Positions 20,854 through 43,079 of a stretch of DNA of 64,000 nucleotides are shown in pieces. This stretch comes from Citrus sinensis (Eukaryota; Streptophyta; Magnoliopsida; Sapindales; Rutaceae). The stretch lies in contig NC_068559.1 of assembly GCF_022201045.2 (NCBI RefSeq), positions 434,001 through 498,000 on the forward strand, read 5' to 3'. Below the pieces are notes generated by a model. It was not told where the DNA came from, made no database searches, and saw nothing but the letters and a program-made list of their open reading frames with translations. A program made the translations under genes and the position numbers. Position 1 is the first letter of the stretch; each line of letters starts with the position of its first letter.

Positions 20854-20883
20854 ATGATGATGATGATGATGATGATGATGATG
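20854..20883. repeat. (ATG)n microsatellite, unit copy 1
   Basis: About ten perfect trinucleotide repeats. The same tract, with the same length by eye, is at 26642-26671 in copy 2. Confidence 0.9.
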
Positions 20884-21661
20884 GTAATAGATGACTTCCT
20901 ATCAACAGATTAATTAATATAAAAAAAAATGTTATGGCCGCAGGACAGACAGGCAAGGCAATACAATTTTTATTGTTATTTTTACGGACTCGTGAAACAT
21001 AAAGAAAACGTAATTACCCATCAGCGGCAACAAAACATAGTGATTGGCAACACACCAATTGTAGTTGATTACAATCAAGTTGATTGGTAAAACAAATTCA
21101 CCAAAGAGCCAAATTATGGTAAAAAATGGTCAAGGGATTCATACAATAAGAATTGGTTTGAGATTTATTGGAATTTCTTATTCCCAAATTATAGTGATTT
21201 CATATTTCATGAACTTATGCTGGCATTTCTTGACAATATTTTTCACGTTGGTGTTCTATTGGTAACATTATTGAATTTTCTTTATCAAGAAATTTCTTAA
21301 ACATATATTATATCATCCATTACAACGAAATCTGCCAATCTTGTTTGAGTATGGGAAATACGTGACCGTAATTTTTTTTAACATTAGTATTACAATCAAA
21401 ATAAAACTAATATTACATTAGACCATAGTTTAATCATGCAAAGGTGATGGTACAATTTGTCACATCGATCATTTGCTTTTGCTGACTTTTTTTTAAATTC
21501 ATTATAGACTTACAGTATTTGACAGATGTTTTGAAATGATAGAAATTTTGAGGGAAAAAAAGAAAAAAAAAAGCTGAAAACGACGCTCATAGTGCTGTTT
21601 TGTCATAAGTTTGTCATGATTTATAGTCTCCATATCATTTTTCATTTTGAGAATGGAGATT

Positions 21662-21889
21662 GTTATCTTACGTAATTATGTTAGATACATGATTCCTCTA
21701 CTACTGTTTGATGAAAATCCAACGGTTATAGAAATATAATATAATAAAACACAAGTCTTTGAACACAAAGTCTCTATCTATATTTCCTTCTGGTATCAGA
21801 GCCAATGAGAGGATTATTTCTACAACTGTTGGATTTTCATTTAATAGCTGTGGAAGAATCATGTATCTTACATAATCACATAAGATAAC
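21662..21889. mobile_element. Short MITE with about 75-bp terminal inverted repeats (copy 1)
   Basis: Left arm GTTATCTTACGTAATTATG and following bases return as the reverse complement at the right end (...CATAATCACATAAGATAAC), including ATACATGATTC and GAAAATCCAAC. The centre holds CTATCTATATTTCCTTC followed by TGGTATCAGAGCC (21791-21803), identical to the initiator tRNA-Met primer site of many LTR elements. The centre is about 56 bp shorter in copy 2 and lacks this motif. Confidence 0.6.
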
Positions 21890-24031: not shown

Positions 24032-24249
24032 TCAACCAGTCTCATTAAGGTTTCGCCCGTATTGAGGAACTTCAAGAAGATCAAGATTATCATTTCTTAT
24101 CTCATCAGCAAGAATACTATCCCAATACGGCCAAATATCAACACCCTCCTTCATAACAAACATCTCTGACCATTGGTTCTTACCTGATAAAATTTCTTTA
24201 TTAAAAAACATAACCTTAAAATACATATATAATTTAATTAATAAAGAAT

Positions 24250-24282
<33 letters not shown>

Positions 24283-24359
24283 AGAGAGAGAAGATAAGAA
24301 TTCGAAGCGGCAATCAAAGTGAACTTGTCTTAAAATGTACCTGCAAAAACAGCTTCCAT
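24032..24359 (-). CDS. Small two-exon gene candidate (56 aa), duplication copy 1
   Basis: I do not recognise this protein. On the minus strand, TATAAATA (24465-24472) lies about 105 bp upstream of ATG 24359. Exon 1 (24359-24341) encodes MEAVFA plus one base and ends in a good donor, CAG|GTAC. Exon 2 (24183-24032) would follow an acceptor TATCAG and continue in frame (GKNQWSEMFVMKEG... to NLNETG) to TGA, 56 residues in all. The peptide is acidic with several Trp. A caveat: the acceptor is also CAG|GTAAGA, a perfect donor, so the exon order could differ and a longer ancestral gene is possible. The ORF is preserved in copy 2 with one visible change (Asp to Pro), which argues mildly for function but may only reflect recent duplication. 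Confidence 0.35.
24249..24282. repeat. (AT)n(GT)n microsatellite
   Basis: Lies in the predicted intron of the small gene in copy 1; the orthologous tract in copy 2 is (AT)n(AG)n and longer. Confidence 0.9.
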
Positions 24360-24597
24360 ATTCTTCAAATCAGAAAATTAAAGAACTCTTCCTATTAATG
24401 CAATGAAAAGCAAGTAGTTTGAGAGACTTGAGCGAGGTGAGATTTTGGTTCCGCCTTGAGATGGTATTTATACACATCCAAGTAGCGACGGCCAATTACA
24501 TAAAAGCCATTGGCCCCGCACGTGGGGCCCGTGGCAATTGGCATACACGACTATCATGTTTCGGAGATTCCCATTTCATAATATCTATTAATCAGTT

Positions 24598-25107: not shown

Positions 25108-25639
25108 ACGAAGGTCACTTAATTTCTATCATTTGTATATTTAAGCATATAAAATTTCATTTTGTTCATACAAGCCCATTATCGTTTCTGTTGTGATTTG
25201 TGAACTACATGAAGATGGTTTCTGTTCTGTCCCCTTCAACTCTGCCCGCAAGTACATACCCATTCACAATTCTCTGCCCATACATATCAGATGAGCTTAA
25301 TTGTATACGTATCAATTACCCTACAGTGTATTTCTTTGTTCACTTTCAATGAATTTCCGGCGAGGTTCGGCCAAAAAAAAAAAAAAAAATTCAAAGACAA
25401 CAATTTTTTTTTAAGGAAAAAATGGGAAAATGATATAAATCTTAAGAAATATCATAATATTATTTATTGAAACAAACCAACAGTCTCGCAATTAACTAAT
25501 CACTATATTATATCTCATTTTATTTATTTAAACATATAAGTTTGTACGGTCATATTCTATGTACAAAGTAATATAAAATGACATTTTGAGATGTCACATC
25601 ACCACTTTGTTTATAATCAAAATAAAAACTATTAGAAGC

Positions 25640-26080
25640 ATAATATTTTATCTAATAGAAAACAATTCAAATTTAGCCATCAGTTAATTACTTTGGCCAA
25701 GGTTCTCCTATGTCGATCAACATCATCTCATCAATAACACTACTCTCAACCGAATGAAAAAAAGTGAGCCGAGAGCGTCTCCATTTTGTAACAGGACAAT
25801 TTCTGCTTGCCGCTCAACAGATGTGGAAAAATCGTATTTACCTTTTTACCTGAACATCATATTAGGAAATTTATTCATAAACAACATGCACAGAATAATG
25901 CGAGGATTAGAAATGGCATTCAACTGAACTCAGCCTAAATGTGTACCTGCAAAAGAAGTTTTCTTAATCTTCAATCAACTCAGGATAGATTTTTCTCCCC
26001 CTGTCCTTGTGTGTAGTCAGAATTAAGCAAGTAGCTGAGCGAGTTCCTGCATGAGTTTCTTTAATCGGAGTCAGCTTTTA
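25640..26080 (-). pseudogene. Decayed paralogue of the small gene (module A, copy 2)
   Basis: Equivalent of 19860-20300 in the second unit, nearly identical and broken in the same way, so the decay predates the tandem duplication. Confidence 0.42.
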
Positions 26081-26641
26081 ATTAAAAGTATCCAAAAAGA
26101 CTGAGATTCTGACGATCGAGCTGGTTTGAGATGGTTGGCTAAACAATGGTTGATCAAATTGTAATTAATTTATTTGTTATCTCATGTGTTGGATGTCACT
26201 AGATAGTTTATTTATTAGGTAGGAACCAGAAAGAGAGTATAAATTGATTCACAATTTGGAGAGAAAATCGTAATCGTAATTGGTAGTTATTTTTGAAATT
26301 TTAGAGAGGGTAAGAAGTAAATATAAAATTCTTTAAATTTTGAAGTAAAAGACATTTCAGAAATTGAATACTGAGAGAAATTTTATGGATATAAATTATC
26401 TTTACCCGAACTAAAATTTGATATTACTATATCACATTGTCGTTTATTTTTAAGGCATTGGTTCTCTAGAATTTTTAAGTTCGAAAATGAGTATTCTGAA
26501 TAATTTTATGACTGTAAATACTAAATAGTCTCACTCTTTTTTAAAGTAAATCTATTAACACAGTAATTGCACAAGTAAATAAAAATTAATAAAGAACGTT
26601 CTGTTCAAATTAATTATTTGCTCCATCACTTAATAACCCAA

Positions 26642-26671
26642 ATGATGATGATGATGATGATGATGATGATG
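26642..26671. repeat. (ATG)n microsatellite, unit copy 2
   Basis: Duplicate of 20854-20883. Confidence 0.9.
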
Positions 26672-27486
26672 GTAATAGATGACTTCCTATCAACAGATTA
26701 ATTAATATAAAAAAAAATGTTATGGCCGCAGGACAGACAGGCAAGGCAATACAATTTTTATTGTTATTTTTACGGACTCGTGAAACATAAAGAAAACGTA
26801 ATTACCCATCAGCGGCAACAAAACATAGTGATTGGCAACACACCAATTGTAGTTGATTACAATCAAGTTGATTGGTAAAACAAATTCACCAAAGAGCCAA
26901 ATTATGGTAAAAAATGGTCAAGGGATTCATACAATAAGAATTGGTTTGAGATTTATTGGAATTTCTTATTCGCAAATTATAGTAATTTCATATTTCATGA
27001 ACTTATGCTGGCATTTCTTGACAATATTTTTCACGTTGGTGTTCTATTGGTAACATTATTGAATTTTCTTTATCAAGAAATTTCTTAAACATATATTATA
27101 TCATCCATTACAACGAAATCTGCCAACAATAATTGAGTCGATCAATTTAAATTTAAGATTTTGTCTTGTTCGAGTATGGGAAATACGTGACCGTAATTTT
27201 TTTTAACATTAGTATTACAATCAAAATAAAACTAATATTACATTAGACCATAGTTTAATCATGCAAAGGTGATGGTACAATTTGTCACATCGATCAATTG
27301 CTTTTGCCGACTTTTTTTTAAATTCATTATAGACTTACAGTATTTGACAGATGTTTTGAAATGATAGAAATTTTGAGGGAAAAGAAGAAAAAAAAAAGCT
27401 GAAAACGACGCTCATAGTGCTGTTTTGTCATAAGTTTGTCATGATTTATAGTCTCCATATCATTTTTCATTTTGAGAATGGAGATT

Positions 27487-27658
27487 GTTATCTTACCTAA
27501 TTATGTTAGATACATGATTTCTCTACAGTCGTTTGATGAAGAAAATTCAATGGTTATAAAAATATAATATAATAAAATTATATTATTTCTACAACTATTA
27601 GATTTTCATTTAATAGCTGTGGAAGAATCATGTATCTTACATAATCACATAAGATAAC
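27487..27658. mobile_element. Short MITE, copy 2 (deleted centre)
   Basis: Counterpart of 21662-21889 with the same inverted-repeat arms but a shorter centre without the primer-site-like motif. Confidence 0.58.
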
Positions 27659-29870
27659 TAAAGCCTTTGAGAATACGTGCTTTCAAAATCACGTGACAAA
27701 TGTTGAAAGTTCAAATAGTCATAAAAAATTTCAATCAATAATTGTGCACCACCTATAGTTTTTAAATTGCATCAAGTAGTCATTTTTCAATTAACTTTGT
27801 TAAATATGTTTAAAAATTTATGCTAAAATTTATTTTATACTTGATAATTTAAAATTGCAAAAATGCATATTTACTCTTTTGTTTATCATAGGCACAATTT
27901 TAACTTTGAAATTTTAAAAATGACAAACGTACTATCTTCATCACAACAATTCATCTTCAATCCTTTTTTAAAAGAAAATGAACTGAAGCATCATTGGCGA
28001 TTTCAAATTTAGCTAAATATCCTTATTGAAACAATAAACAAAACTAACTGCAAAATCATTATTTTGTTGGGATTTTAATCCGTCCAATGTCTCCCCTATA
28101 TTGGTTGGAGACAATCCTTCTTCAATTAGAAATAGGATTTGAGCCTATTCTATGACTTAGGTCTGGATGTGGTCTATGAAAGCTATTTTGATGATATTTT
28201 GAGGATTAAGGTTCATAAGATTATTTGGGTATTGATGCGGTCTGAATAAACTCGTGTTAAAACTTTGAGCATGGCTTGCTTGTCGAACAGGTGCATCTGG
28301 GTTTGAATAATAATAATATAGTGCCATGAATAACAGACAACCAGGGTTTAAGATCATGCCTTAGGGACTTATACAACAAAAAACGAGGAAAAAGTCCTAA
28401 TGTGATTTAAGGGTTAAAGGTGGAATTTTGAGATAATTGAAACCTTAAAGTGTGATTGGACGGTGTTTAGGGTGGTTTTGACACTAGTTATAAGAATAAA
28501 AGTATTTGAGTGTTGAATTTAAGAATATTGTTGTAATAGTTCGTTGGATTTAAGGTCAATGCTTGAGGGTTGAAACATGTTTGACTAAGAATGAAGGATT
28601 GTTCATAGTCAAGGAATGTGTTTTAATAGTGATATGATGGTGAGGACGACTAGTTTAGGGTTTTTTAAGAATAAAGAAATCTAAACTATGGTTATTTGGT
28701 CAACAAGAAGACCTTTCCTTGAACAAAGAAGGTGGATGGTTGCAAAGGTTGCTCTTTAGAGGGTGTTTAGGCTACTGAATAATAGTTAGGATGTTGGTGA
28801 GTGCTTAATGGTCGTTTAAGCATGCTTGAATAGTGTATAAGGTTTGAAGGTAAACCTAATTGGCAGTAATCAAGAATCTCAAAAGAGGAATAGATTCTCA
28901 GGGTTTCATAAGTATTCTAAGAGGGTTTATGGGCTTAAGCTAGAGTTAACTACTAGATCGAAAATACTGACCTTGGCATAGACTCAATAATGGGCCTACA
29001 TACCATTAGGCAGTATTAGGTCTCTTATGAGCTTTTTATGATTATTGGTTATCTACTAATCCGTTCCATAAAGCATTCTCTTATGAGAAAGGTCCCCAAG
29101 TAGGCTTAGCTAAGAATTCTGTGTGAATTAATCCTCAAATTAGTGCATTCATACTTTCCAAACCATAGCTCACAATGGTTACCCTGGCATAGTAGCTTAG
29201 ATCCCTTATAAAATACATATCTAATGGACTAATTAGGACCTTTGAACCTAATGTCAATTTTCAAGTAGTAATAATCATTTATAAAAATCTCAATATTAAA
29301 TAATGTATGAAGCCTCAGTTACCTCAGTATTAGGACCCCATTTATTTATGCCACCATTGTGTTGCCCTTTGCGCTCATATCATGACTCATCTTTATTTGT
29401 TTCTTTGTTTTTTTTTTAATTTTTTACTTTATTGAGCTTCTTTCTAGGCTCAATCTTTGTCCTCCCATTTAAATTTCTAATATTTTTCCCTTTTCTCAAA
29501 AAAAAAAAAATTCGTACTTAGTTGTGCTTTTGCTCAATAATAATAATAATAACAAATCAACACACAATCAACCTTTTTTATTTTTAGGAAAACTAAAGTA
29601 CATGATGCAATCAAAGGATATTTTTTTACATCTGAAGAGATCATCTTATTTATTGAATTAAACTACTGGCAATAGTACAAGTCTTTTATTTATTCAATAC
29701 AAAAGAGTAACGCTATGCTTATTTATTAAATACTAAGTATTTCATATATGTCTTTCATGCAAAGTGATATAAAATTGCATTTTGAGGTACCAAATCCACA
29801 CTTTGTTTATGAAATACAAACTCTTGAAAGCATAACATTACTCAACATAAAGCAACTCGTATTTAGCCAA

Positions 29871-30086
29871 TCAACCAGTCTCATTAAGGTTTCGCCCGTA
29901 TTGAGGAACTTCAAGAAGATCAAGATTATCATTTCTTATCTCATCAGCAAGAATACTATCCCAATACGGCCAAATAGGAACACCCTCCTTCATAACAAAC
30001 ATCTCTGACCATTGGTTCTTACCTGATAAAAATTTCTTTATTAAAAAACATAATCTTAAAATGCATATATAATTTAATTAATAAAG

Positions 30087-30148
<62 letters not shown>

Positions 30149-30233
30149 GGGGGGAGAGAGAGAGAAGATAAGAATTCGAAGCGGCAGTCAAAGTGAACTT
30201 GTCTTAAAATGTACCTGCAAAAACAGCTTCCAT
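29871..30233 (-). CDS. Small two-exon gene candidate (56 aa), duplication copy 2
   Basis: Counterpart of the gene at 24032-24359. Exon 1 30233-30215 and exon 2 30022-29871 keep the same frame, start, splice sites and stop. The only residue difference I see is EGVPIWPYW against EGVDIWPYW in copy 1; the relic near 46.15 kb also has Pro, so Pro is probably ancestral. The intron is enlarged by an (AT)n(AG)n microsatellite. Function unknown. Confidence 0.35.
30089..30168. repeat. (AT)n(AG)n microsatellite
   Basis: Compound tract with a short G run, about 80 bp, in the predicted intron of the small gene in copy 2. Confidence 0.9.
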
Positions 30234-30726
30234 ATTCTTCAAATCAGAAAATTAAAGAACTCTTCCTGTTAATGCAATGAAAAGCAAGTAGTTTGAGAGA
30301 CTTGAGCGAGGTGAGATTTTGGTTCCGCCTTGAAATGGTATTTATACACATCCAAGTAGCGACGGCCAATTGCGTGAAAGCAGTAGGCCCCGCACGTGGG
30401 GCCTGTGGCAAATGGCACACACGACTATCATGTTTTAAAGATTCCGATTTCATAATATCTATTAATCAGTTAATAGTAATAATAATTTATTTTGATACTT
30501 ATCTACAAGTCAAATTTATATTTCACTGCTCTAGTTTGCTTAATGTAATATTTTCCCCAAATCAAAATAATCCCTATAAGTAGTGATTGGGAAGTGAGGA
30601 ATCACATTCTTTGTTTGTAAGAACCAAGATAGCAAGAATAACTAAAATGGTAGAAAAAAATTATTTGCCAACAAACAATCTATTATTCGATTCTCAATTC
30701 TAGTTGATATGCACCAATGTGACAAG

Positions 30727-32065
30727 TGTTGTGCAAATTTTAATGTACTCGCAAGCGCACGAATCTATTGTAGTATAGACTAATGGTGACGAGTGTCGAT
30801 CCCACGAGAAGGTGGATTTTAATTATGTGTAGAATTAATTTTGTAAATGGGTGGTTGGATTTGTGGTGGAAATTATTTGGAATATGCTAAAACTTAAATT
30901 AAAATGGCGAGAATAAATTCTAAAATTGTAATTGAAATGACAAGAATAAATTGAAGAGAATTCTATTGAGATGACTTACTTGGGTATCTAGATCTGTATC
31001 AACATGCATCATGGGCTAAATAATCCGTATTAATGCCAATTAAATCATGAGGGGGGAATCCACACCTCATGAACCACGCTCTAATCAATATGGTGCTAAG
31101 GGTTTATCGTGCCAAATAATAATAACCTTGTACTAGAGGGTCGGTGAAACCAAGGCGGTACTAGACAAGATTAGTATTATTTATCGACGAGAAGTAAAAA
31201 CATCCACAAAAACTAGAGGGGAAGAGAAAATAAATTTACCAAATTAAGCCCATGACACATGTTGAGACTTCACCTTCAACCCAAGCTTGAAAGAAAATTA
31301 GCCACTCATAATTGAACTAGGGGCAAAATGGGAATTTATTAAAATACAAAAAAAAATACAAGATAGAGAGGGAATTACAGAAAACAAAGTCCAAAAATGG
31401 ATTCAGAGGTATCAAATTAGGGGGGGAAGGCCCCCTTTTTATAGATACATGGAGTAAATCATGGCCATCGGATTAAAAACAGTTTGGACGCTCAGGATTG
31501 CGCCACGTCATCAGTCAACAGTACGCGGTTTGACCACGCGGATGAACAGTAACACGGTTTGACCTGGATGAATAGTAACGCGGTTTGGTTGAAAATAATC
31601 TTGTGTGATGCATGTACCGTACGCGAGATTTTTCGTCCACTAATATGCTGCCACGTCACCATCAACAGTACATAAGAATTTTAGCCCAACAGGATCGTGA
31701 CACCTCATTAGTCAATGCCACATCATCAGTCAATGCCACATCATCGTCCGTCTATGTGAACAGTGTCGTGAACAGTAACATATACAGTACCGTACATGTG
31801 AACAATGTCATTTTTTCTTTTATGCTCCTTCTAAGGTTTTCGACCGTCCTGAGTTCAAAAGTGATGTCCGTTTTGCCATCTGATCTCTCGTTTATTGTGA
31901 AATGACTATGATGCCCCTAAAATACATAAAATACTTAATTAAAATAAAACACACGGAATTAAATCAAAAGAACGTTAAATTCATAAAAGTAAAGGTGTTA
32001 GTAAAACTTGTAGTGTAAAATGACGATTTTCTCCTTTATAAATATATATTTTCTAACACTCAACA
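30727..32065 (-). repeat. 3' LTR of the Athila element
   Basis: 1339 bp, about 96-97% identical by eye to 41737-43074. The differences cluster where this copy keeps CG and the other has TG or CA. Confidence 0.95.
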
Positions 32066-32078
32066 CACCCCCCAACCA
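32066..32078 (-). promoter_or_regulatory. Polypurine tract
   Basis: The minus strand reads GGTTGGGGGGTG directly before the 3' LTR start TGTTGAG; this is the expected primer for plus-strand synthesis. Confidence 0.8.
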
Positions 32079-33507
32079 GCTTATTGCTAGTCCCTAGCAA
32101 ATAAAGCGAAAACAAAATTCAAAACCAAAATGATTTTTTTATTTTATTTTATTTAGAAACACTCGTGTTTATTCAATCAGATTAATGATAGCAATCAAAT
32201 AAAAGTATAAGCATTATCTCCAGTCTAAAGTAACATCACACCCACATCAACCATCCACATGAATCAGCCCAGTAGACTTTGTTATAGCTACTTTCAAGAA
32301 TGACATGTCAAACCCCAAAATCTCACTGGAAATAGTGACACTCTCACAAAAAAAAAAAGTTAAACCCAATAAAAATAGTCACTCCAATGAATGGTAATTG
32401 AGAGAAAATAATAAAGAAGTGATCTCACATGCTCTCACCAAAATGAAAGAAATATACCCTCAGCTTAAAAATAATACGATCTCCAATCAAATAAAAATGC
32501 TAGTCAACCCAATTTATTTTTTTTTTATTTTTTTTATGCATCACTACATCTTTTTAGCCCATATAACTAGCTTCTACTTCAGATTATAGTTCCCTAAAAT
32601 CAAGAAGGACTTTTATTAGGACGAAACATAGGCTAGGGACATGGTTAACAAAGAAGGGAAATAAGAAAAACAAAGTATATGTTTGAGAAAAATGCAGAGG
32701 AATGTTTTTTTTTTTTTTGAAAGTTGCAAGGTGCATTTCACCTATTATTTTTTTTTTTCTTTTTTTTTTGCTTTTGCTTGGCACAACGTCACTGAACAAA
32801 ATAATTATTTACATTTTTCTCAAACATAAATAGGTGATGGAACTTATAAGACATTGGGTAATACTCCAAATCAGAGTGGGTCAAGATGATAAGTTAACAA
32901 AGAAAAAGTTTTTTTTTTTTTAAGGCTCAAAAGGGGTAACTATGGATATTTAATAAAAGGGATGGCTAGAAAGGCTCAAACGGATCAAAGATGGCCTTTC
33001 CATCGTCTTTTAGGGCTCTAAATAATCATCCATATCTACTAGTTAGATGGGCCTCCCAATGTAGCAACACATTTTTTTTTACCATTTTTTTAAGGGTTAA
33101 CTCAAAAGAAATCTAGAGATCGTGTATAAAATAATAAACTGCTAAGCTGTATAGAGAATGGGCAAAAGGGTTACTCTCCAAGAAAATGATAGGCTCAACA
33201 ACTCACTTGGTACTTATTTATGACATGTTCATTCCTTCAAGCAACTCATATTTGTCTCCGACATCAACATGTAAAGTAGCAAACATAGCGTAACATCACT
33301 TAAGACCAAAGATAATATAAATACTAAAATTTGAAATTAATCATGTCATCCAATGTTAAAACAAATCACACAATTTTTTTTTTAAACAACATTCTACCCC
33401 CCAACCTATTCTAAACATGAAAGGAAAATATGCATGCAGAAATGTGAAAATGATGCAGAAAAATTAATTAGAAAAGTTACACGTAAAATGATAGAAAACG
33501 AAAATGG

Positions 33508-33538
<31 letters not shown>

Positions 33539-33926
33539 TTAAGAAGATGCGTTTCTAGAGGCACTACACTCCATATTCAGCCATCTTCGACTCACAAGTT
33601 GGAAAATGTATATTTATAGAGGAGAAATTAAAAAGAAGAAAAATAAACATAAAAACATAATAAAGAAAAAAAATGTCTGAATTTTTTTTTTAACGATGAA
33701 GATGCGTTTCTAGAGTCACTACACTCTATATTCGGCCATCTTCAACACAAAAAGTTAGCAACAGTTAGTTTCTACAACAAAAAATTAGTAAAAACTTAAC
33801 CAAAATTTCACAATTGTCAACTATTCCCTCCCCCCAACCAGAACGAAACATTGTCCTCAATGTTTGAAAGGAAAGAAGTAGAGTTTAAAAGACATCACCT
33901 GGGTGGTGCAACACAGAAAACAATAT
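32079..33926. other. Non-coding 3' internal region of the Athila element
   Basis: 1.85 kb between the LOG-like ORF and the polypurine tract, rich in A/T homopolymers. Two 46-bp near-copies (33543-33588 and 33698-33743), each beginning GAAGATG and ending CATCTTC, so each can fold back at its ends; each follows a T run. No ORF supported. Confidence 0.6.
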
Positions 33927-34595
33927 TTACAAGCGGAGAGTTAAATCTAATTTGTACTTCTTACTGCGGCTACTATTACCATCATTATTTGGATGCTCCA
34001 ACACAAAGGTCCAGGGGTCTGGCTCCGGTCTATAAACTTGTAACATATCAAGTAGCTCATTAGCAGTGTGAGCACAAATAAAGAGTTTTTTCGCATTAGA
34101 GGGAATGAAATAATTTTTTATTGCATGGTTAAGAAATGCGATAAAGACATCATAAAAGTTGTTGACATTTAACAAACCGATGGGTTTCTGGTGGATGTGC
34201 AGATGGGCCCAAGATGCTAGTGTGATAAGTGCCTCTAGTGTTGCAAGATCTCCTGGAAGGAAAATAAAAGCATCAGCATGATTAAGCATTTCAGTTATTC
34301 TTTCTTGCATACCTGAGACGACTAACTCTTCTCCAGTTGATGAGTCAGACGAACTGCCCAATGGTTTTAGGACTCTTGGGATGATGCCTAACACTTGACT
34401 TCATCTGATAAAAGCTGCTTTTGAGACCATTTTTGATAACCCTCGGTTACCTCCTCCATACACCAAGTGTAATTTTCTCTCTGCTATACTTCGACCAAGA
34501 TCGATGGCTGCCTCAACGAACTCTTTATGTTTGTCATAGGTAAATCCAGAAAGCACACAAATGTTCTTGAATTGTCTATTTGGAGTAGCTGCCAT
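33927..34595 (-). pseudogene. Accessory ORF 3: intronless LOG-like (cytokinin riboside 5'-monophosphate phosphoribohydrolase) copy
   Basis: LOG enzymes release active cytokinin bases from their ribotides. From ATG 34595 the frame runs 222 codons, the family length, with one in-frame TGA at codon 65 (34401-34403, where Gly is expected). Rossmann-like features: NICVLSGFTYDK, LGRSIAERKLHLVYGGGNRGL, QVLGIIPRVL, Arg99 in MQER, DAFIFLPGDLATLEA, IHQKPIGLLNVNNFYD. The PGGxGTxxE catalytic motif is altered to PGDLATLEA (residues 114-122), so even before the stop codon activity is doubtful, unless it comes from a host clade with this variant. Plant LOG genes have several introns; this copy has none, so it was captured through RNA. 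Confidence 0.85.
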
Positions 34596-34912
34596 TGTGA
34601 TACTTCTTAAAAATAATTTGTGAGTGCTTGACAAAAAAATCACATTTAAGAGTCTTGGTGACAGTGGGTCACAGTTGTATATGAGATAACATGTCAGTGT
34701 CAAATAACGCGTAAAGCACGTGGCTCGCGAGTCAAAAATGAAACAGTAAAAAGGAAAAAGCAAACAATAATAAAATTATTAAAGAAAATAATGCACACAA
34801 TAAAACAATAGTGAAATAAAATAACAATAAAGTGAAAGGATATTTACAGGTAGTTGCGACTGTGGCTCACATCTTCCTCTGGTTTTACGTCCAGAAACGG
34901 CTTGAACGCTCT

Positions 34913-35470
34913 CTATGGGTCGAGGATAGGCTTCCTATCTAGTTTTCTTATAAACTGGCAAACAGGGTCGTTTATAGTCAGATTCCCGAGACTATATCGT
35001 GCATGCTCTTTCTGAAATAATGGCCATAACTGGAGAATCGCTCCTTGCACATATCCACTGTGATGCGTTTCAAGAGACAAAAGGATATCATCCAATGACT
35101 CCTTATTCAAGCCATTCCTAATGAATTGAATCTTATATTCCCTGTTATCAGACACCATTCCTAAAGAACATGGGTTTTTATTGCAACTCATTCTGGCACA
35201 CTTATGACAAGCAACATAAATTTTTTGAGCTCGTCGTTTTCTTGCATAATTTCCTTTACCACAACCAGGCAAGTATGCAATAAATTTTGGAGGTAACTCA
35301 TCTGCCGATCGTACTTTAGCCTCGATTAACCAACGGATGTCAGCAGGTATGTTATTCCTCATGAGTAATCGCATGCATTCAGATCGAGCTTTATAGATCG
35401 TAAGGAGGGCATTCTGAGGAAGTGAAGGGAATCGCTTGTGAAGCTTTGCTAGAATCTCGTTTCTGTTCAT
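34913..35470 (-). CDS. Accessory ORF 2: basic cysteine-rich protein, viral NABP-like
   Basis: Intact 185-aa ORF (ATG 35470, TAG 34913-34915). A basic patch (residues 71-83, GKGNYARKRRAQK) runs straight into a putative zinc-binding cluster with Cys88, Cys91, Cys96 and Cys101 (CHKC, then x4 C x4 C). The order G-x-x-x-Y-A-R-(R/K)-R-R-A, then CHxC, then two more Cys, is the hallmark I associate with the cysteine-rich nucleic-acid-binding proteins of carlaviruses and relatives (Viral_NABP family), several of which are reported as RNA-silencing suppressors. The N-terminal helical region (1-60) would align with the family's N-terminal part; the C-terminal about 80 residues are extra. The resemblance is from motif memory, not a search. 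It is the only fully intact cargo ORF of substantial length. Confidence 0.6.
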   Translation of the reverse strand: MNRNEILAKLHKRFPSLPQNALLTIYKARSECMRLLMRNNIPADIRWLIEAKVRSADELPPKFIAYLPGCGKGNYARKRRAQKIYVACHKCARMSCNKNPCSLGMVSDNREYKIQFIRNGLNKESLDDILLSLETHHSGYVQGAILQLWPLFQKEHARYSLGNLTINDPVCQFIRKLDRKPILDP

Positions 35471-35611
35471 ATTTTTGCCTCAGAATATCAGTTATTATGG
35501 GAAACTGAAGTAACCGACTTGATTGTCATGGAGTACCGTTATCCGCCACTTCACCGGGGTAACAAACTAAAGCACACAAACAGAAAAACAAATTAAAACA
35601 CACAAAGAAAA

Positions 35612-35845
35612 TTAAAATCGTTCTCTTATTGAATTCACCTCAAGCTCCAACTGGATGTCGTAAACACTTCTCTTAATATCTCTGAGTTGGCTTTCTAGAC
35701 CCTCAACATAGGATACTAACTCTGGTGGTTGTAGAGCCCAAATGCGATGTGTTTTACAAAATTGAATCTGCCTTTTGAGATGAGTTTTGACACATTGAAG
35801 TGGTTTAAGAATGTTCAGGAGGAACGGTCTAAGTAAGGTACTCAT
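35612..35845 (-). CDS. Accessory ORF 1 of the Athila element, 77 aa, unrecognised
   Basis: ATG 35845, 127 bp after the integrase stop. The first half is basic and hydrophobic; the second half (about 44-77: YVEGLESQLRDIKRSVYDIQ and on) has heptad-like spacing suggesting a coiled coil. No family recognised. It shares the strand and spacing of the two following cargo ORFs, so it may be the first cistron of a subgenomic transcript. A short chance ORF is possible. Confidence 0.4.
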   Translation of the reverse strand: MSTLLRPFLLNILKPLQCVKTHLKRQIQFCKTHRIWALQPPELVSYVEGLESQLRDIKRSVYDIQLELEVNSIRERF

Positions 35846-35972
35846 GATTAAAAATGATAAGAGAAAACTTAATAGTTAAACAAACACACTTATGTAAAAA
35901 TAATTTCAATTAGCAAAAGAATAATATAAAGAAAGAAAGAAAGAAAAAATCAAATCACCAAAAAGAAAAAAA

Positions 35973-36872
35973 TCAATTCAAATTTGGTGGGTCACTCAAA
36001 TTTATTTCGATGTCTTCTCCATGTGGTTGGTATTCTAGACATGGCTTTAATCTTTGACCATTAACTTTAAACGTGACATCGTTCTTTGGGTCCTTAATTT
36101 CAATTGCCCCATGTGGAAAAACAGTATGTACAATAAATGGGCCAGACCAACGAGAGCGTAACTTACCTGGGAATAGGTGCAAGCGAGAATTGAATAAAAT
36201 CACTTTCTGATCTAGAGTGAACTATTTTCTCATAATTTGCTTATCATGGAAGACTTTCATTCGTTGCTTGTAAATCTGGGCATTTTCGTATGCATCATTG
36301 CGAATTTCTTCAAGTTCTGCCAGCTGTAATCTTCTTTCTGAGCTGGCTTGCTGCATGTCAAAATTGAATTTCTTGATGGCCCAATATGCACGATGCTCGA
36401 GTTCCACGGGTATGTGGCAAGCTTTTCCATACACTAGCCTGTAGGGTGACATCCCAATCGGGGTCTTGAAAGCTGTTCTGTATGCCCATAATGCATCATC
36501 AAGTCTTAATGACCAATCTTTTATGTCTGGCCTCACCGTTTTTTCTAATATGTACTTTATTTCTCGATTGGATATCTAAACTTGGTCACTGGTTTGCGGA
36601 TGATACGTAGTCGCCACTTTGTGTGTGATTGAATACTTTGTCAAAAGAGCTTTTAATGCTTTGTTACAAAAGTGGGCACCACCATCACTGATTATTGCTC
36701 GAGGGAATCCAAAGCACGAAACAATGTTGCTTTTCAAAAATCCTATCACCACCTTGTGATCATTGGTCCTACATGGAATTGCTTCTACCCATTTCGATAC
36801 GTAGTCAACAGCAACCAATATGTATTGATGGCCAAAAGAAGGGGAAAATGTCTCATGAAGTCGATACCCCAT
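35973..36872 (-). pseudogene. pol: Athila integrase core and C-terminus (broken pol, part 3)
   Basis: The frame resumes with [36 protein letters not shown] and [15 protein letters not shown] (DDE core), is cut by TAG at 36576-36578, continues ([29 protein letters not shown]), is cut by TAG at 36222-36224, and ends with [15 protein letters not shown], the integrase C-terminal module. Stops 35973. These are point lesions in otherwise collinear sequence. Confidence 0.88.
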
Positions 36873-38400
36873 ACATCAAAAATCTCAACCACTAAAATTG
36901 AATTTAGTGGCATCATGTTCCTTCGTGTAATACTCCCCATTCGTTGACACCTATCACATGAAGAACAGAAAGTGTAAGCATCTCGAAATATAGTTGGCCA
37001 ATAAAAACCACATTGTAAAATTTTAGTTGCTATTTTCTTAGCACTGAAATGGCCTCCACAAGCTTGTTCATGGCAGAATGAAAGGATATTCTGAATTTCA
37101 CTTTCTGGGACACATCGTCTAACAATTTGATCTGCACAATACTTGAACAAATACGGGTCATCCCAAAAGAAATTCTTTATTTCCGCAAAGAATTTAGCAT
37201 TGTCTTGCTTAGTCCAATGCTCTGGAAGTTGACATGTAACAAGATAATTAACTATATCAGTATACCATGGTAATACTTCCACACTCATTAATTGTTCATC
37301 TGGAAATGACTCATTCAATATTAATGGCTCTGTAATTGTGTCAAAATGGAGACGAGAGAGGTGGTCCGCCACAACATTTTCTGTCCCTTTCTTATCTTTG
37401 AATTCCAAGTCAAATTCCTGCAAAAGTAACACCCAAGGAATTAGTCTAGCTTTTGCATCTTTCTTTGTGAGAAGATATTTAAGAGCAGCATGATCTGTGA
37501 ACACGATTATTTTACAACCAATGAGATAAGATCGAAATTTCTCTAATGCAAACACTACTGCTAGCATTTCTTTTTCAGTAGTTGAATAGTTCAATTGTGC
37601 ATCATTCAATGTCATACTAGCATAGTAAATAACGTGGGGAATTCGATCAACTCTTTGTCCTAATATTGCTCCTACTGCATAATCAGATGCATCACACATG
37701 AGCTCAAATGGTAAGCTCCAATTTGGGGGCTGAATGATGGGTGATGATGTCAACAACTGTTTTAACTTTTCAAATGCCACAAGACATGAATCATTAAAGA
37801 TAAAAGGTACATCCTTAGCAAGTAAATTGCATAAGGGTCTAGAAACTTTACTAAAATCTTTAATGAAACGTCTATAGAAACCAGCATGCCCAAGGAAAGT
37901 TCTTACTTCTCTGACTGTTTTGGGTAGAGGAAGATTAGAAATGAGATCCACATTGGCTTTGTCAACCTCAATACCTTTGCTCGAAATGATGTGACCGAGA
38001 ACAATACCTTGTTTTATCATAAAATGGCACTTCTCCCAATTTAAGACCAAGTTCTTCTCGATACATCTCTGCAGAACTAGTGTTAGATGATGTAAACATT
38101 GATCAAACGAGTCACCAAAGACAGAAAAATCATCCATAAAGACTTCAAGGAATCGTTCAACCATATCAGAAAAAATGCTCAACATGCATCGTTGAAATGT
38201 AACAGGTGCATTACATAATCCAAATGGCATTCTCCTATATGTAAATGTGCCAAAAGGGCAAGTGAAAGTAGTTTTCTGTTGATCTTTTGGTGCTATGGGA
38301 ATCTGATTATATCCTGAGTAGCCATCTAGGAAGCAATAAAACTCATGGTCTGCCAATCTATCAAGCATTTGATCAATAAATGGTAAAGGAAAATGGTCTT
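36785..38400 (-). pseudogene. pol: Athila reverse transcriptase, RNase H and integrase N-part (broken pol, part 2)
   Basis: A frame of about 530 codons. RT core: [18 protein letters not shown], the FMDD catalytic box (about 38129-38140), [13 protein letters not shown]. RNase [45 protein letters not shown]. Integrase zinc-binding HHCC: ...[10 protein letters not shown]... to CSSCDRCQR. Near 36840 one base is missing (after FMRHFP), which throws the DDE core out of frame. Confidence 0.9.
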
Positions 38401-38436
38401 TACGTGTGACGGAATATAATCAATGCATACACGCCA

Positions 38437-39693
38437 TCATGTAGTTACTCTAGTGGGTACCAATTCATTATCAGCATTCGTAACTACTGTGACTCCTGAC
38501 TTTTTGGGGACAACTTGCACAGGACTGATCCATGAACTATCAGAAATTGGGTAAATGATACATGCATCTAATAGCTTAAGGACTTCAGTTCTAACAACTT
38601 CTTTCATGTTAGGATTTAACCGATGTTGCATCTCCCTAGTAGTTTTAGCATTTTCATCAAGGTAAATATAATGCATGCAGTCTACTGGGTTTATACATTT
38701 AATGTCTGCTATGGTCCATCCTAATGCTCCTTTGTGCTCTTTTAAAACATCCAACAACTTACCTTTTTGTTCGTCATTTAGGGATAATGAGATGATTACC
38801 GGCAGACTACTTTCTTCTCCCAAAAATGCATATTCCAGAGTGTTGGGTAATGGTTTGAGCTCGAGTTTCGGTGGTGATTCTGATGATGGGATGAGTTTCT
38901 TCTCTGATGGTGCTAGTTGTTCAACTCTTGACTTCCATTTATTAGTGTCCATGGATGGTGCTGAGTCAAGTAGGGCGTTGACCTCATCGACTGATCTGTC
39001 AATATCAAAATCCAAACCAAAGTGAGTTAAGCATGTTTGTAAAGGATCATCACTAAAGTTTGAAAGAAAAGTGTCATCAACTAATGCTTCAATTAAATCC
39101 ACATCAATAATTCCATCATCTGCATTGTGAGGTTGTTTGGCAATGTTGAAGATGTTCAGCTCCATAGTTATGTTGTCGAAAGACAACTGCATATTTTCAG
39201 TCCTGCATTGAATGTGAGCATCCGCAGTCGCCAAGAAAGGTCGGCCTAGAATAATGGGGATGTGCTTCCTTGAATCCTGTATTGGTTGAGTGTCAATTAC
39301 AATGAAATCAACAGGAAAATAAAACTTGTCTACCTGGATAAGCACGTCCTCCACAATACCACGAGGTATTTTCGTGGACCGATCTGCGAGTTGTAACACC
39401 ACTGAAGTTGGGTGTAATTCTCTCAGTCCAAGTTTCACAAATACTGAACAAGGCAACAAATTTACACTAGCTCCTAAATCCAACAAAGCATTCTCAATTG
39501 TGTGGTTCCCTATACTACATGAGATAGTGGGGGAGCCTGGGTCTTTGCATTTTAAAGGAATTTTATGTTGGAGTATAGAACTAACGTTTTCTGTTAAAAA
39601 TGCCTTCTTTTGAACATGCATATTTCTCTTTTTAGTACAAATGTCTTTAAGAAACTTGGCATAAGATGGAACTTGTTTAATAGCATCAAGCAA
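38437..39693 (-). pseudogene. pol: Athila protease and start of reverse transcriptase (broken pol, part 1)
   Basis: Open frame continuing gag after the junction frameshift. The protease active-site region is LDLGASVNLLP and the flap-side LGRPFLATADAHIQ is present. The end enters RT (HRLNPNMKEVVRTEVLKLLD, SDSSWISPVQVVPKKSG). It stops at an in-frame TGA at 38437-38439 where a glycine codon is expected. Just downstream (about 38395-38425) roughly ten bases of the conserved IDYRKLN region are missing, which shifts the frame again. Confidence 0.88.
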
Positions 39694-41353
39694 AAGGGAT
39701 GTTAATACTTACCTGTTTGAAGATTTCAAGAATCTCACCTGTGGATTTTCCCTTTTTTCCTTTAGCTAACCTCTGAGGAAATAGAGCTTTGGGAACATAT
39801 TCCTGTGGGTTGGTTTCTTCTCTCTCCTCCGGTGATGAGTCTTCAACATTCACAGGTACAATTTGATTTTCTTTTATCACCGGCATCTCCACTTTGTTAT
39901 CGACTTCTTTTCCTTTTCGCAAGGTCATGACGACTTTGACTTCTCCATGCTGCTGTGGTGAACTGGTACTTGCTTCATGCACTCCTTTAGGGTTAGGCAC
40001 TGGTTGACTTGGAAATTTACCTTTCTCAACGGTCATTGCCAAGGTCTGAACTGAAGAAGCAAGTTGTCCCACCATCTTCTCAAGGCTTGAAACTGATTGG
40101 GCTTGTGAATTGAAGCCTGCTCTCAACTCATTTCGTAGTCCATCAATGGTGCGGTTCTGTTGCTCAATCATAGAGTGAGTAAGATTCTTGAGATTCTGGA
40201 ATGAATCCTCCCATGGTCTGGGTTGAGAGTAGTTCTGGTTCTGATTGTATGGTCTAAATGGGGGCTGAGAGGCTTGAGGAATTTGAGGAATTGGTTGCAT
40301 TGGTGGAGCTGAAGCTGCTGGTCCATTCTGTTGGAGTCCTTGAGACCATGAAAAATTGGGGTGGTCTCTCCATCCAGGGTTATATGTGTTGGAGTATGGG
40401 TTGTAATTTGATGGCTTTCTCATTACACCTATGGCATTGGCTTGATCTGAGTATGAGTCATGGTCATGTGGTTCTGTTGAGTTAGCAGTCGATAACGATG
40501 CTATTTGTCGAGCAAGACCTTCAACCATCTCCTTGACTTCTTCGATTCCCGAAGTTGACTCGCCAATGTGAACCTCATTTACTCCCTTAATTCTTCTAGT
40601 ATTCCTGAGTGATCGACTCCGTTGTTGGGAATTATCCGCTTGTCGCTGGAAGAATTCCCAAATCTCTGATGCACTTTTTGACATTAGCTCTCCTCCACTT
40701 GTTGCCATTAGCCATTCTTGCACATTCGGCAATAATCCCTCCAAAAAGTATTGGCATTGGTGCCATTTCTCGTACCCATGATGTGGACACTTCAAGAGTA
40801 GCCCATCGAATCTCTCCCATGTTTCGAAAAATTGCTCGTCCTCTCTCTGGGTAAACTCCGAGATTTCCCTGCGAATAGCATTGGTTTTATGCACTGGGAA
40901 ATATTTATTCAAAAATTTTGTTACCATTTGTTCCCATGATGCAATGCTATTAGCAGGCAATGTATTAAGCCGTGAACGAGCTTTATCTTTTAAAGAAAAT
41001 GGGAATAGTCTAAGTTTTACATCATCATCTGAAAAATTTTCATATTTAAAAGTTTGACAAATAGCATGAAAATCATTCAGATGATTATATGGATCCTCAT
41101 TTTCTAGGCCATAAAATGTGGGGAGACAATTTAGCACACTAGGTTTTAATTCAAAACTCCTAGTAGCTACATTTGGGTATCTTATGCATGATGTGCTCAA
41201 ATTTGCTAAAGGACTGAAATAATCCTTAAATGGCCTCTCATGTGATGCTTGTAAATCCATTTTATTTTTAACGTGCCTGTGTGTGCGAAGTGTTTTTTCT
41301 AATTCAAGGTCTATAGATTCAAGATTAGGTAATAATGACCTACGACCATGCAT
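39686..41353 (-). CDS. gag: Athila gag polyprotein
   Basis: 555 aa from ATG 41353 to a stop that arises only because of a frameshift at the gag-pol junction. Retrotransposon gag domain at about 65-250: FYGLENEDPYNHLNDFHAIC, RLFPFSLKDKARSRLNTLP, ANSIASWEQMVTKFLNKYFP, EYF-type EGLLPNVQ. The C-terminal half is rich in Asn, Gln and Pro, with NPGWRDHPNFSW and a predicted coiled region around 370-430. No CCHC knuckle is visible, which is usual for Athila gag. The protein forms the virus-like particle. An extra T near 39690 ends the frame; the ancestral frame ran on into protease. Confidence 0.9.
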   Translation of the reverse strand: MHGRRSLLPNLESIDLELEKTLRTHRHVKNKMDLQASHERPFKDYFSPLANLSTSCIRYPNVATRSFELKPSVLNCLPTFYGLENEDPYNHLNDFHAICQTFKYENFSDDDVKLRLFPFSLKDKARSRLNTLPANSIASWEQMVTKFLNKYFPVHKTNAIRREISEFTQREDEQFFETWERFDGLLLKCPHHGYEKWHQCQYFLEGLLPNVQEWLMATSGGELMSKSASEIWEFFQRQADNSQQRSRSLRNTRRIKGVNEVHIGESTSGIEEVKEMVEGLARQIASLSTANSTEPHDHDSYSDQANAIGVMRKPSNYNPYSNTYNPGWRDHPNFSWSQGLQQNGPAASAPPMQPIPQIPQASQPPFRPYNQNQNYSQPRPWEDSFQNLKNLTHSMIEQQNRTIDGLRNELRAGFNSQAQSVSSLEKMVGQLASSVQTLAMTVEKGKFPSQPVPNPKGVHEASTSSPQQHGEVKVVMTLRKGKEVDNKVEMPVIKENQIVPVNVEDSSPEEREETNPQEYVPKALFPQRLAKGKKGKSTGEILEIFKQVSINIPFA

Positions 41354-41713
41354 GAAAAACAAATAAAATAAAAATAAAGATGGGAACAAAACAAATAAAA
41401 ATAAAGAAGAGGGAGAAATTACGATACTAACCTTATTGCGCTATTACAACCTTTCTATAAAAATACACAAAAATAAATACATGAAATAAATTAACGAAAA
41501 ATAAATTAATAAGATAAAAAAAATTACAAAGAAAAATAAATTAAAAATTAAATTACAGAATTTTAAAGAAGAGAAAAATAAAAGAAATACTAACCTTTAA
41601 ATGTAGATTCACTCTTTTTTTTTCTTTTTTTTTAATAACAAAAAAAAATACAAGAAAACAAATAAAAGAAATTATTCACAAAAATTAATTCTATTAATTA
41701 AAATTACTTACCT

Positions 41714-41730
41714 CCCCGGCAACGGTGCCA
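41714..41730 (-). promoter_or_regulatory. Primer binding site, tRNA-Asp type
   Basis: The plus-strand sequence CCCCGGCAACGGTGCCA equals the 3' end of plant tRNA-Asp(GTC) plus CCA with one change (T for C). It lies 6 nt inside the 5' LTR, as in Athila elements. Confidence 0.85.
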
Positions 41731-41736
41731 AAAACT

Positions 41737-43074
41737 TGTTGTGCAAATTTTAATGTACTCGCAAGCGCACGAATCTATTGTAGTATAGACTAATGGTGAC
41801 GAGTGTCGATCCCACGAGAAGGTGGATTTTAATTATGTGTAGAATTAGTTTTGTAAATGGGTGGTTGGATTTGTGGTGGAAATGATTTGGAATATGCTAA
41901 AACTTAAATTAAAATGGTGAGAATAAATTCTAAAATTGTAATTGAAATGACAAGAATAAATTGAAGAGAATTCTATTGAGATGACGTGCTTGGGCATCTG
42001 GATCCGTATCAACATGCATCATGGGCTAAATAATCCGTATTAATGCCAATTAAATCATGAGGGAGGAATCCACACCTCATGAACCACGCTCTAATCAATA
42101 TGGTGCTAAGGGCTTATCGTGCCAAATAATAATAACCTTGTACTAGAGGGCCGGTGAAACCAAGGCGGTACTAGACAAGATTAGTATTATTTGTCGACGA
42201 GAAGTCAAAACATCCACAAAAACTAGAGGGGAAGAGAAAATAAATTTACCAAATTAAGCTCATGACACATGTTGAGACTTCACTTTCAACCCAAGCTTGA
42301 AAGAAAATTAGCCACTCATAATTGAACTAGGGGCAAAATGAGAATTTATTAAAATACGAAAAAAATACAAGATGGAGAGGGAATTATAGAAAACAAAGTC
42401 CAAAAATGGATTCAGAGGTATCAAATTAGGGGGGGAAGGCCCCCTTTTTATAGATACATTGAGTAAATCATGGCCATTGGATTAAAAACAGTTTGGACGC
42501 TCAGGATTGCGCCACATCATCAGTCAACAGTATGCGGTTTGACCGCATGGATGAACAGTAACATAGTTTGACCCGGATGAACAGTAATGCAGTTTGGTTA
42601 AAAATAATCTTGTGTGATGCATGTACCGTACGCGAGATTTTTCGTCCACTAATATGCTGCCATGTCACCATCAACAGTACATAAGAATTTTAGCCCAACA
42701 GGATCGTGACACCTCATCAGTCAGTGCCACATCATCGGTCAATGCCACGTCATCGTCCGTCTATGTGAACAGTGTCGTGAACAGTAACGTATACAGTACC
42801 GTACATGTGAACAGTGCCATTTTTCCTTTTATGCTCCTCCTAAGGTTTTCGACCGTCCTGAGTTCAAAAGTGATGTCCGTTTTGCCATCTGATCTCTCGT
42901 TTATTGTGAAATGACTATGATGCCCCTAAAATACATAAAATACTTAATTAAAATAAAACACACGGAATTAAATCAAAAGAAGGTTAAATTCATAAAAGTA
43001 AAGGTGTTAGTAAAACTTGTAGTGTAAAATGACGATTTTCTCCTTTATAAATATACATTTTCTAACACTCAACA
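41737..43074 (-). repeat. 5' LTR of the Athila element
   Basis: 1338 bp, TG...CA ends. On the minus strand a TATA box (TATAAAAA, 42445-42452) is followed directly by a G-run/C-run hairpin. The upstream part carries repeated TGAACAGTAAC-like and CACATCATCAGTCAATGC-like words. Confidence 0.95.
42445..42452 (-). promoter_or_regulatory. LTR TATA box
   Basis: TATAAAAA on the minus strand, immediately followed by GGGGGCCTTCCCCCC, which can form a hairpin. The same arrangement is present in the other LTR at about 31436-31443. Confidence 0.55.
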
Positions 43075-43079
43075 ACAAG

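What the first reader, a model, noticed from the sequence alone, without database searches (positions are those of the whole stretch)
33927..35845. Athila-type retrotransposon carrying a three-ORF cargo cassette between integrase and 3' LTR
In the slot where Athila elements often have an env-like ORF, this element has three same-strand ORFs: a 77-aa coiled-coil-like ORF, a 185-aa basic cysteine-rich ORF resembling a viral nucleic-acid-binding protein, and an intronless LOG-family copy. A putative RNA-binding or silencing-modulating protein next to a cytokinin-activating enzyme is what one expects of a plant pathogen's accessory genes, not a retrotransposon's. Cassette ORFs carry one lesion in about 1.5 kb, while pol carries six in about 3.7 kb. 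If other copies keep these ORFs, this is a distinct retrotransposon lineage with host-manipulating cargo.
Basis: partly seen in the sequence, partly recalled or inferred. Interest (0 to 1): 0.88.

Follow-up and report, generated by a model that had tools for sequence, protein, structure and literature searches.

The report
Citrus retrotransposon with virus-like accessory genes
A very abundant retrotransposon of a citrus genome carries three extra genes that natural selection has kept: one resembles a nucleic-acid-binding protein of plant RNA viruses, another is a captured plant hormone-enzyme gene whose active site has been altered; this suggests the element uses them for itself, though their job is untested.

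Summary
The window contains a 12.3-kb gypsy-type LTR element of Athila-like layout (1.34-kb LTRs, 5-bp target duplication) with ORF77, a 185-aa basic cysteine-rich protein ("NABP") and a LOG-like ORF between integrase and 3' LTR. It is no single-copy accident: the genome has over 1,200 matches to each of two sequences flanking NABP. In 40 copies fetched at NABP hits, LOG follows in 40 and ORF77 precedes in 39, at least in part, in the same order. Between subfamilies A and B dN/dS is about 0.2 (NABP, LOG) and 0.34 (ORF77). What changes: (1) LOG in gypsy elements of Citrus is already published; (2) this LOG has lost the PGGxGTxxE signature in every copy where it could be read, so cytokinin activation is unlikely; (3) NABP is probably a remote homologue of carlavirus-type nucleic-acid-binding proteins, seems older than LOG here, and is flanked by two blocks conserved far better than its third codon positions. 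I read the cassette as element-serving accessory genes: an RNA-binding, possibly silencing-counteracting protein plus a repurposed LOG fold. "Host-manipulating cargo" is not shown.

The parts
30727..43074 (-). whole LTR retrotransposon copy (Athila-like gypsy layout)
   Evidence: LTR pair and TSD
41737..43074 (-). 5' LTR
30727..32065 (-). 3' LTR
41714..41730 (-). primer binding site TGGCACCGTTGCCGGGG (TGGCGCC... in the other A copies read)
41706..41713 (-). AGGTAAGT, splice-donor-like, directly after the PBS; in 7 of 7 subfamily-A sequences incl. window, in 0 of 3 subfamily-B copies
39686..41389 (-). gag (PF03732)
38437..39693 (-). protease region (PF13650)
35973..38368 (-). RT, RNase H, integrase region, broken in this copy
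35612..35845 (-). ORF77, conserved small ORF of unknown fold
35488..35548 (-). 5' conserved noncoding block just upstream of the NABP start
34913..35470 (-). NABP ORF, 185 aa, basic region plus C4 zinc-finger-like motif
34844..34927 (-). 3' conserved block across the NABP stop codon, followed by GTAAAT
33927..34595 (-). LOG-like ORF, intronless, one in-frame stop in this copy, 222 aa in intact A copies; PGDLATLEA in place of PGGxGTxxE
32068..32079 (-). polypurine tract CTGGTTGGGGGG
43075..43079 (.). target site duplication CTTGT (upstream side)
30722..30726 (.). target site duplication CTTGT (downstream side)

Best explanation
The cassette is a set of accessory genes kept by selection on the element's own replication, in the slot where other Athila elements carry env-like ORFs. 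NABP came first: a small basic zinc-finger-like protein probably sharing ancestry with carlavirus-type cysteine-rich proteins. It most likely binds RNA, either the element's own transcripts (the two conserved blocks that bracket its ORF are the obvious candidates) or silencing RNAs, and so protects or regulates the element RNA. LOG was added later as an intronless copy of a host LOG mRNA. Its catalytic loop then changed before the Citrus subfamilies split, and it was kept under purifying selection as a nucleotide-binding fold with another role. Shown: structure, copy number, order, purifying selection between subfamilies, motif loss, conserved blocks. Inferred: expression (probably from spliced RNAs), RNA binding, silencing link, the order of gain, the role of LOG and of ORF77.
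For: Copies: 1253 and 1264 genomic matches (up to 2 mismatches) to 24- and 23-base pieces of the two blocks, reversed-pattern controls 0. The NABP search gave 1879 candidates, of which the best 150 were scored; 149 of 150 have no stop inside. Of 40 copies fetched at NABP hits, LOG is found in 40 and ORF77 in 39, some only in part; four of them (L036-L039) were picked because the LOG search also listed them. Of 8 fetched at the 5' block, NABP 8, ORF77 8, LOG 7, all three stop-free in 3. dN/dS with bootstrap range: NABP A-B 0.22 (0.13-0.33), A-L001 0.15 (0.08-0.26); LOG A-B 0.20 (0.13-0.31), A-C 0.17 (0.11-0.26); ORF77 A-B 0.34 (0.16-0.63). Homology: 38 of 38 aligned NABP relatives match Carla_C4 and 35 of 38 Viral_NABP at E <= 1, best 1.7e-7 and 2.8e-8; 0 of 8 reversed sequences match either. 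A 3.3-kb plant-like contig (L001) has integrase and NABP, and no LOG or ORF77 match. Blocks: 5' 55/62 and 3' 76-80/84 identical between A, B and L001, where NABP third positions are 55-61% identical. Motif loss. A host LOG with the canonical motif is split into exons.
Against: No expression, splicing or binding data. The window's own NABP is below both Pfam cut-offs, and reversed controls reach 22.5 bits to an unrelated family, so the viral link is remote. The predicted structure is poor (pLDDT 57 and 62) and no fold search was possible. The splice donor after the PBS is absent from 3 of 3 subfamily-B copies. Within subfamily A constraint looks weaker for NABP (0.42) and ORF77 (0.69; one pair 1.12), on few changes; one ORF77 A-B bootstrap value exceeded 1. 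Many copies have a broken cassette ORF: all three are full length in only 16 of 40 and stop-free in 3 of 8. The post-stop block could also be coding by read-through. A sample chosen by pol was never obtained.
Confidence: 0.6

Rival explanations
1. Host-manipulating cargo: LOG raises active cytokinin and NABP reprograms host transcription or silencing, enlarging the pool of dividing cells in which the element can move.
For: The LOG fold family is clear (TIGR00730 121.9 bits over a cut-off of 96.35; At2g37210 E 1.3e-43). Carlavirus cysteine-rich proteins suppress silencing in Potato virus H and M (PMC3689765, passages). Purifying selection on both ORFs.
Against: The signature E of PGGxGTxxE is absent wherever it could be read (119 of 120 homologs, 40 of 41 LOG-bearing sequences), and D stands for its second G in 116 of 120 and 40 of 40. 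No expression evidence.
Confidence: 0.12
2. The 185-aa ORF is unrelated to viral proteins; a basic stretch next to four cysteines arose independently in an env-like slot.
For: The Carla_C4 match centres on the basic and cysteine region. Finger spacing differs: C-X2-C-X4-C-X3/4-C in 88 of 120 listed relatives, no C4 match of this kind in 29, others in 3, against C-X2-C-X9-C-X4-C in Potato virus H (PMC3689765).
Against: Of 8 relatives shown in detail, 6 pass the Carla_C4 and 8 the Viral_NABP cut-off, the latter with matches of 61-96 profile positions; 0 of 8 reversed controls match these families.
Confidence: 0.25
3. Passenger cassette: LOG, and perhaps ORF77, hitch-hiked on a recently successful element and are not selected; low dN/dS reflects earlier history.
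For: Many copies have broken LOG or ORF77. NABP and ORF77 constraint within subfamily A is weak, and single pairs such as LOG within B reach 0.56.
Against: dN/dS of LOG is about 0.2 between three subfamilies (A-B, A-C, B-C) and 0.12 pooled within A; intact 222-224 aa ORFs occur in A, B and C.
Confidence: 0.1
4. A cluster of host genes or a virus insertion that happens to lie inside an element.
For: Names such as LOGL10 on annotated Citrus proteins.
Against: Same order and strand in all 40 fetched copies; over 1,200 matches to each block piece.
Confidence: 0.01

Closest known systems
Gypsy / Athila-like elements with a LOG-like extra ORF (Steinbauerova et al. 2011; YgdH domain in Citrus and Populus consensuses, Alvarado-Marchena et al. 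2022, PMC9289625)
   Same: LOG/YgdH domain inside gypsy-type elements of Citrus sinensis and C. clementina (one section read). Very probably the same family.
   Different: 'Nucleic acid binding' and 'carlavirus' do not occur in the main text of PMC9289625; the section read says nothing of ORF77, the LOG motif or conserved blocks. The 2011 paper is not held; that it names Athila-like elements with LOGL4 similarity is recalled.
Carlavirus and allexivirus cysteine-rich / nucleic-acid-binding proteins (PF01623, PF05515)
   Same: Basic stretch followed by four cysteines; relatives pass the Pfam cut-offs.
   Different: Encoded by an LTR retrotransposon, about 182-185 aa with a predicted helical N-terminus and a conserved C-terminus, shorter finger loop.
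Orchid gypsy elements with an AlkB RNA demethylase (PMC9289625)
   Same: A plant LTR element that fixed a domain also used by flexiviruses, perhaps against host control of RNA (passages).
   Different: Other domain, other lineage; activity was shown there, not here.
Athila env-like elements of Arabidopsis, Calypso, Diaspora (PMC2410132, PMC1142308; passages)
   Same: In Arabidopsis, 3' env ORFs under purifying selection and modular recombination among lineages.
   Different: No ATHILA domain was found in the ORFs scanned here; Diaspora lacks an extra ORF.

Membership tests
Athila lineage (gypsy, OTA) | LTRs, 5-bp TSD, gag-PR-RT-RH-INT order | tested here: met
Athila lineage (gypsy, OTA) | PBS complementary to tRNA-Asp, as in Diaspora and Calypso | tested here: inconclusive
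   PBS-like site found; I did not align it to a citrus tRNA-Asp; the tRNA-Asp primer is from PMC1142308
Athila lineage (gypsy, OTA) | RT placed with Athila in a phylogeny | not tested
   no reference RT set was at hand
Athila lineage (gypsy, OTA) | no chromodomain after integrase | tested here: met
   no such match in the 8 ORFs scanned
Athila lineage (gypsy, OTA) | ATHILA ORF-1 domain (found in 16% of Athila elements only, PMC6317226) | tested here: not met
   not a defining feature of the lineage
LOG (cytokinin riboside 5'-monophosphate phosphoribohydrolase) | SLOG/TIGR00730 fold family | tested here: met
   121.9-124.4 bits against 96.35 for 3 of 3 proteins
LOG (cytokinin riboside 5'-monophosphate phosphoribohydrolase) | NCBI equivalog model NF058542 above its cut-off | tested here: not met
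   82.7-87.9 bits against 300 for 3 of 3 proteins; I did not test whether plant LOGs pass this model
LOG (cytokinin riboside 5'-monophosphate phosphoribohydrolase) | PGGxGTxxE motif (as LOG signature: recalled) | tested here: not met
   final E in 0 of 119 readable homologs (of 120) and 0 of 40 readable LOG-bearing sequences (window and 39 copies, of 41); D replaces the second G in 116 of 120 and 40 of 40
LOG (cytokinin riboside 5'-monophosphate phosphoribohydrolase) | enzyme activity | not testable with these tools
   -
Carla_C4 / Viral_NABP | score above the Pfam cut-off | tested here: inconclusive
   met by relatives (6 of 8 for Carla_C4, 8 of 8 for Viral_NABP); not met by the window's own copy
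Carla_C4 / Viral_NABP | finger spacing C-X2-C-X9-C-X4-C as in Potato virus H | tested here: not met
   C-X2-C-X4-C-X3/4-C in 88 of 120
Carla_C4 / Viral_NABP | nucleic-acid binding or silencing suppression | not testable with these tools
   -

The most novel reading that the evidence does not exclude
A plant retrovirus-like lineage has for a long time encoded a homologue of flexivirus RNA-silencing suppressors that works on two conserved RNA elements bracketing its own ORF, like a combined suppressor and RNA-export or packaging regulator; the Citrus branch added a LOG-fold protein that senses a nucleotide rather than making cytokinin. If the retroelement family is the older one, it may be the source of the viral cysteine-rich proteins.
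Probability: 0.2. Interest if true: 0.85.

Novelty: new variant of a known kind. Interest (0 to 1): 0.62.

Why it matters
Extra domains fixed in plant LTR retrotransposons are few enough that a screen of 121 genomes listed 15 (PMC9289625), and what they do is mostly unknown. A conserved homologue of a plant RNA virus cysteine-rich protein in an element with over a thousand copies would tie transposon and virus counter-defence together and make the question testable with a single protein assay. Dozens of the 120 Citrus-type LOG entries listed carry a cytokinin-enzyme name; the lost signature says that such names are probably misleading for this family. The conserved blocks around NABP look like unrecognised cis-acting RNA elements.

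Tried and rejected
Rejected: single-copy accident; neutral cassette between subfamilies; a chance LOG match. A retrovirus-like splice donor directly after the PBS looked general from subfamily A but is absent from 3 of 3 subfamily-B copies in which the PBS was found, and no PBS was found in the region fetched for one C copy, so I do not claim it for the lineage. Read-through of the NABP stop (TAG in 39 of 42 rows) is possible but undecided: by eye, in the rows printed, the A to B differences in the extension (L010 against L022) change the amino acid, while against L001 some are silent. RNA structure: a consensus fold shows both-sided changes at three pairs of the 3' block (4 cells among 34 rows) and one pair of the 5' block (2 cells among 27), beside broken pairs; too little for a covariation claim. 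YAG within 55 bases before the 5' block occurs in 37 of 42 sequences, which is not much more than I would expect by chance in such a stretch; GTAAAT after the 3' block in 40 of 42. Rfam on 33800-36300: one sub-threshold hit. The viral-contig scan found no relative; phage records none. Two structure predictions were poor. One search was a mis-specified fold and is not used. Paper searches bearing on a viral-type NABP in retrotransposons: no papers; 4 papers listed; 17 of 18 listed; on LOG in such elements: 1 paper; 17 listed, YgdH in one; 15 of 432 listed. From listings only, none but PMC9289625 was on the subject; this covers open-licence PMC only.

Not done: choosing copies by pol and asking how many lack the cassette. 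That search did not complete. The nearest substitute, 8 copies chosen by a noncoding block of the cassette itself, is not independent of it.

Full report
What is there. The window lies in a 300-Mb genome of 11 contigs. Three contig lengths equal those behind Citrus sinensis protein records (C5 38998145, C9 33998288, C6 26176707), so I take it to be Citrus sinensis (inference). The element runs from 43074 down to 30727 on the minus strand: LTR, PBS, gag, protease, RT-RNase H-integrase, ORF77, NABP, LOG, PPT, LTR, flanked by CTTGT. LTR divergence is K 0.0347; with commonly used plant rates (recalled, 0.7-1.3e-8) that is roughly 1.3-2.5 million years. This copy is dead: pol has one frameshift and two stops in its last 2.4 kb, LOG one stop.

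The cassette is a family trait. A search with NABP gave 1879 candidate places; of the best 150 scored, all are at least 94% identical and 149 have no stop inside. Another query brought a second subfamily B, about 85% identical to P0030 with its own set of equal-scoring copies, and other branches that I call B2 and C. Queries with distant relatives put subfamily A places first; four of the places listed were fetched (L019, L047-L049) and are of type A. I fetched 40 copies from these lists, most of them high in score and therefore biased to intact NABP; L036-L039 were picked because the LOG search also listed them. LOG lies downstream in 40 of 40 and ORF77 upstream in 39 of 40, some only in part; the exception is a region that I cut short. 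All three ORFs are full length in 16 of 40 by my reading. Of 8 copies fetched at the 5' noncoding block (of 100 places listed and 1253 found), NABP and ORF77 are found in 8, LOG in 7, and all three are stop-free in 3.

Selection. Pairwise Nei-Gojobori values on individual copies (no consensus): NABP A-B dS 1.06, dN/dS 0.22 (bootstrap 0.13-0.33); LOG A-B dS 0.74, 0.20 (0.13-0.31), A-C 0.17, B-C 0.20; ORF77 A-B 0.34 (0.16-0.63), A-C 0.21. Other A-B pairs give NABP 0.22-0.26, LOG 0.20-0.26 and ORF77 0.34-0.41. Against the plant-like contig L001, NABP is 0.15 (A) and 0.21 (B) and the shared 3' part of pol 0.12 (B). Within subfamily A, pooled over 3 pairs (2 for ORF77), pol is 0.09, LOG 0.12, NABP 0.42 and ORF77 0.69, with few changes for the last two. 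Some single pairs are high: ORF77 within A 1.12 (5 changes), LOG within B 0.56, NABP within A 0.42-0.55, NABP B-C 0.53. Pol dS between A and B is beyond the method's range while LOG A-B dS is 0.63-0.76, which would fit exchange of the 3' cassette between lineages, as described for Arabidopsis Athila (PMC2410132, passages); I did not test this further.

NABP. 205 proteins match at E <= 1e-3 and 120 are listed. The named ones are from Citrus, Xanthoceras and Acer; most carry no name. In the 38 and 60 members aligned the family is conserved over its whole length, with invariant or nearly invariant basic and cysteine positions. All 38 aligned members match Carla_C4 and 35 Viral_NABP at E <= 1, best 1.7e-7 and 2.8e-8. 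Of 8 shown in detail, 6 pass the Carla_C4 and 8 the Viral_NABP cut-off, the latter with 61-96 profile positions. None of 8 reversed sequences matches either family, though 7 of 8 match Stress-antifung, at up to 22.5 bits and below its cut-off. So I take common ancestry with the viral proteins as likely, not proven. Carlavirus cysteine-rich proteins suppress silencing in Potato virus H and M, while that of Chrysanthemum virus B did not suppress locally induced silencing (PMC3689765, passages); whether NABP does is inference.

LOG. 525 proteins match at E <= 1e-3; 53 of the 120 listed are exactly 222 aa, and one cluster holds 705 sequences. It passes the TIGR00730 cut-off but not that of the equivalog model NF058542, and its best solved relatives are Arabidopsis At2g37210 and At5g11950. 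Where these have PGGYGTLEE or PGGYGTMEE, the element proteins typically have PGDLATLEA: the final E is absent in all 119 readable of 120 homologs and all 40 readable of 41 LOG-bearing sequences (window and 39 copies; L043 not covered), and D stands for the second G in 116 of 120 and 40 of 40. That this motif is the LOG signature is recalled knowledge. One genomic place has an exact match to a degenerate pattern of the canonical motif, in a host LOG that matches in separate exon-like pieces, so the element version fits a processed mRNA capture. L001, a plant-like contig filed under a bacterial MAG, has integrase and NABP but no LOG or ORF77 match within its 3330 bases, which suggests that NABP preceded LOG; loss there is not excluded.

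Conserved blocks. Just upstream of NABP, and again across its stop codon, lie stretches that are 55/62 and 76-80/84 identical between A, B and L001, where NABP third positions are only 55-61% identical. The genome has 1253 and 1264 matches to pieces of them with up to 2 mismatches, controls 0. They border pyrimidine-rich spacers, and GTAAAT follows the second in 40 of 42 sequences, as an exon end might. Spliced mRNAs are therefore my guess for expression. An AGGTAAGT directly after the PBS supports this in subfamily A (7 of 7 sequences) but not in B (0 of 3).

Verdict. The LOG part is known in print (PMC9289625, section read). The viral-like NABP, the altered LOG site, the selection on all three ORFs and the conserved blocks were not seen in the searches made, which cover open-licence papers only, in part through capped listings. 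The mechanism remains inferred.

Noticed in passing
window 19403-24582 and 25108-30456: Tandem segmental duplication with a spacing of about 5.7-5.9 kb, copies 95-99% identical in the blocks listed, ending next to the element's 3' LTR.
   Followed up: no
window 33528-33597 and 33683-33752: A 70-bp direct repeat (83%) in the noncoding stretch between LOG and the 3' LTR.
   Followed up: no
window, near 33836 and 33400: Two further polypurine-like GGTTGGGGGG tracts inside the 3' noncoding stretch, besides the one at the LTR.
   Followed up: no
L001 (DAIEQH010000041.1): A contig filed under a Candidatus Nomurabacteria MAG encodes a gypsy-type integrase and NABP; it looks like plant contamination.
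   Followed up: partly
G000:C5 about 10.73-10.77 Mb: Several subfamily-B copies in a row, two of them about 9.9 kb apart, as if sharing LTRs.
   Followed up: no
proteins P0005, P0011, P0078, P0110: Citrus gene predictions that join NABP and LOG into one protein; probably annotation artefacts, but they might reflect real splicing.
   Followed up: no
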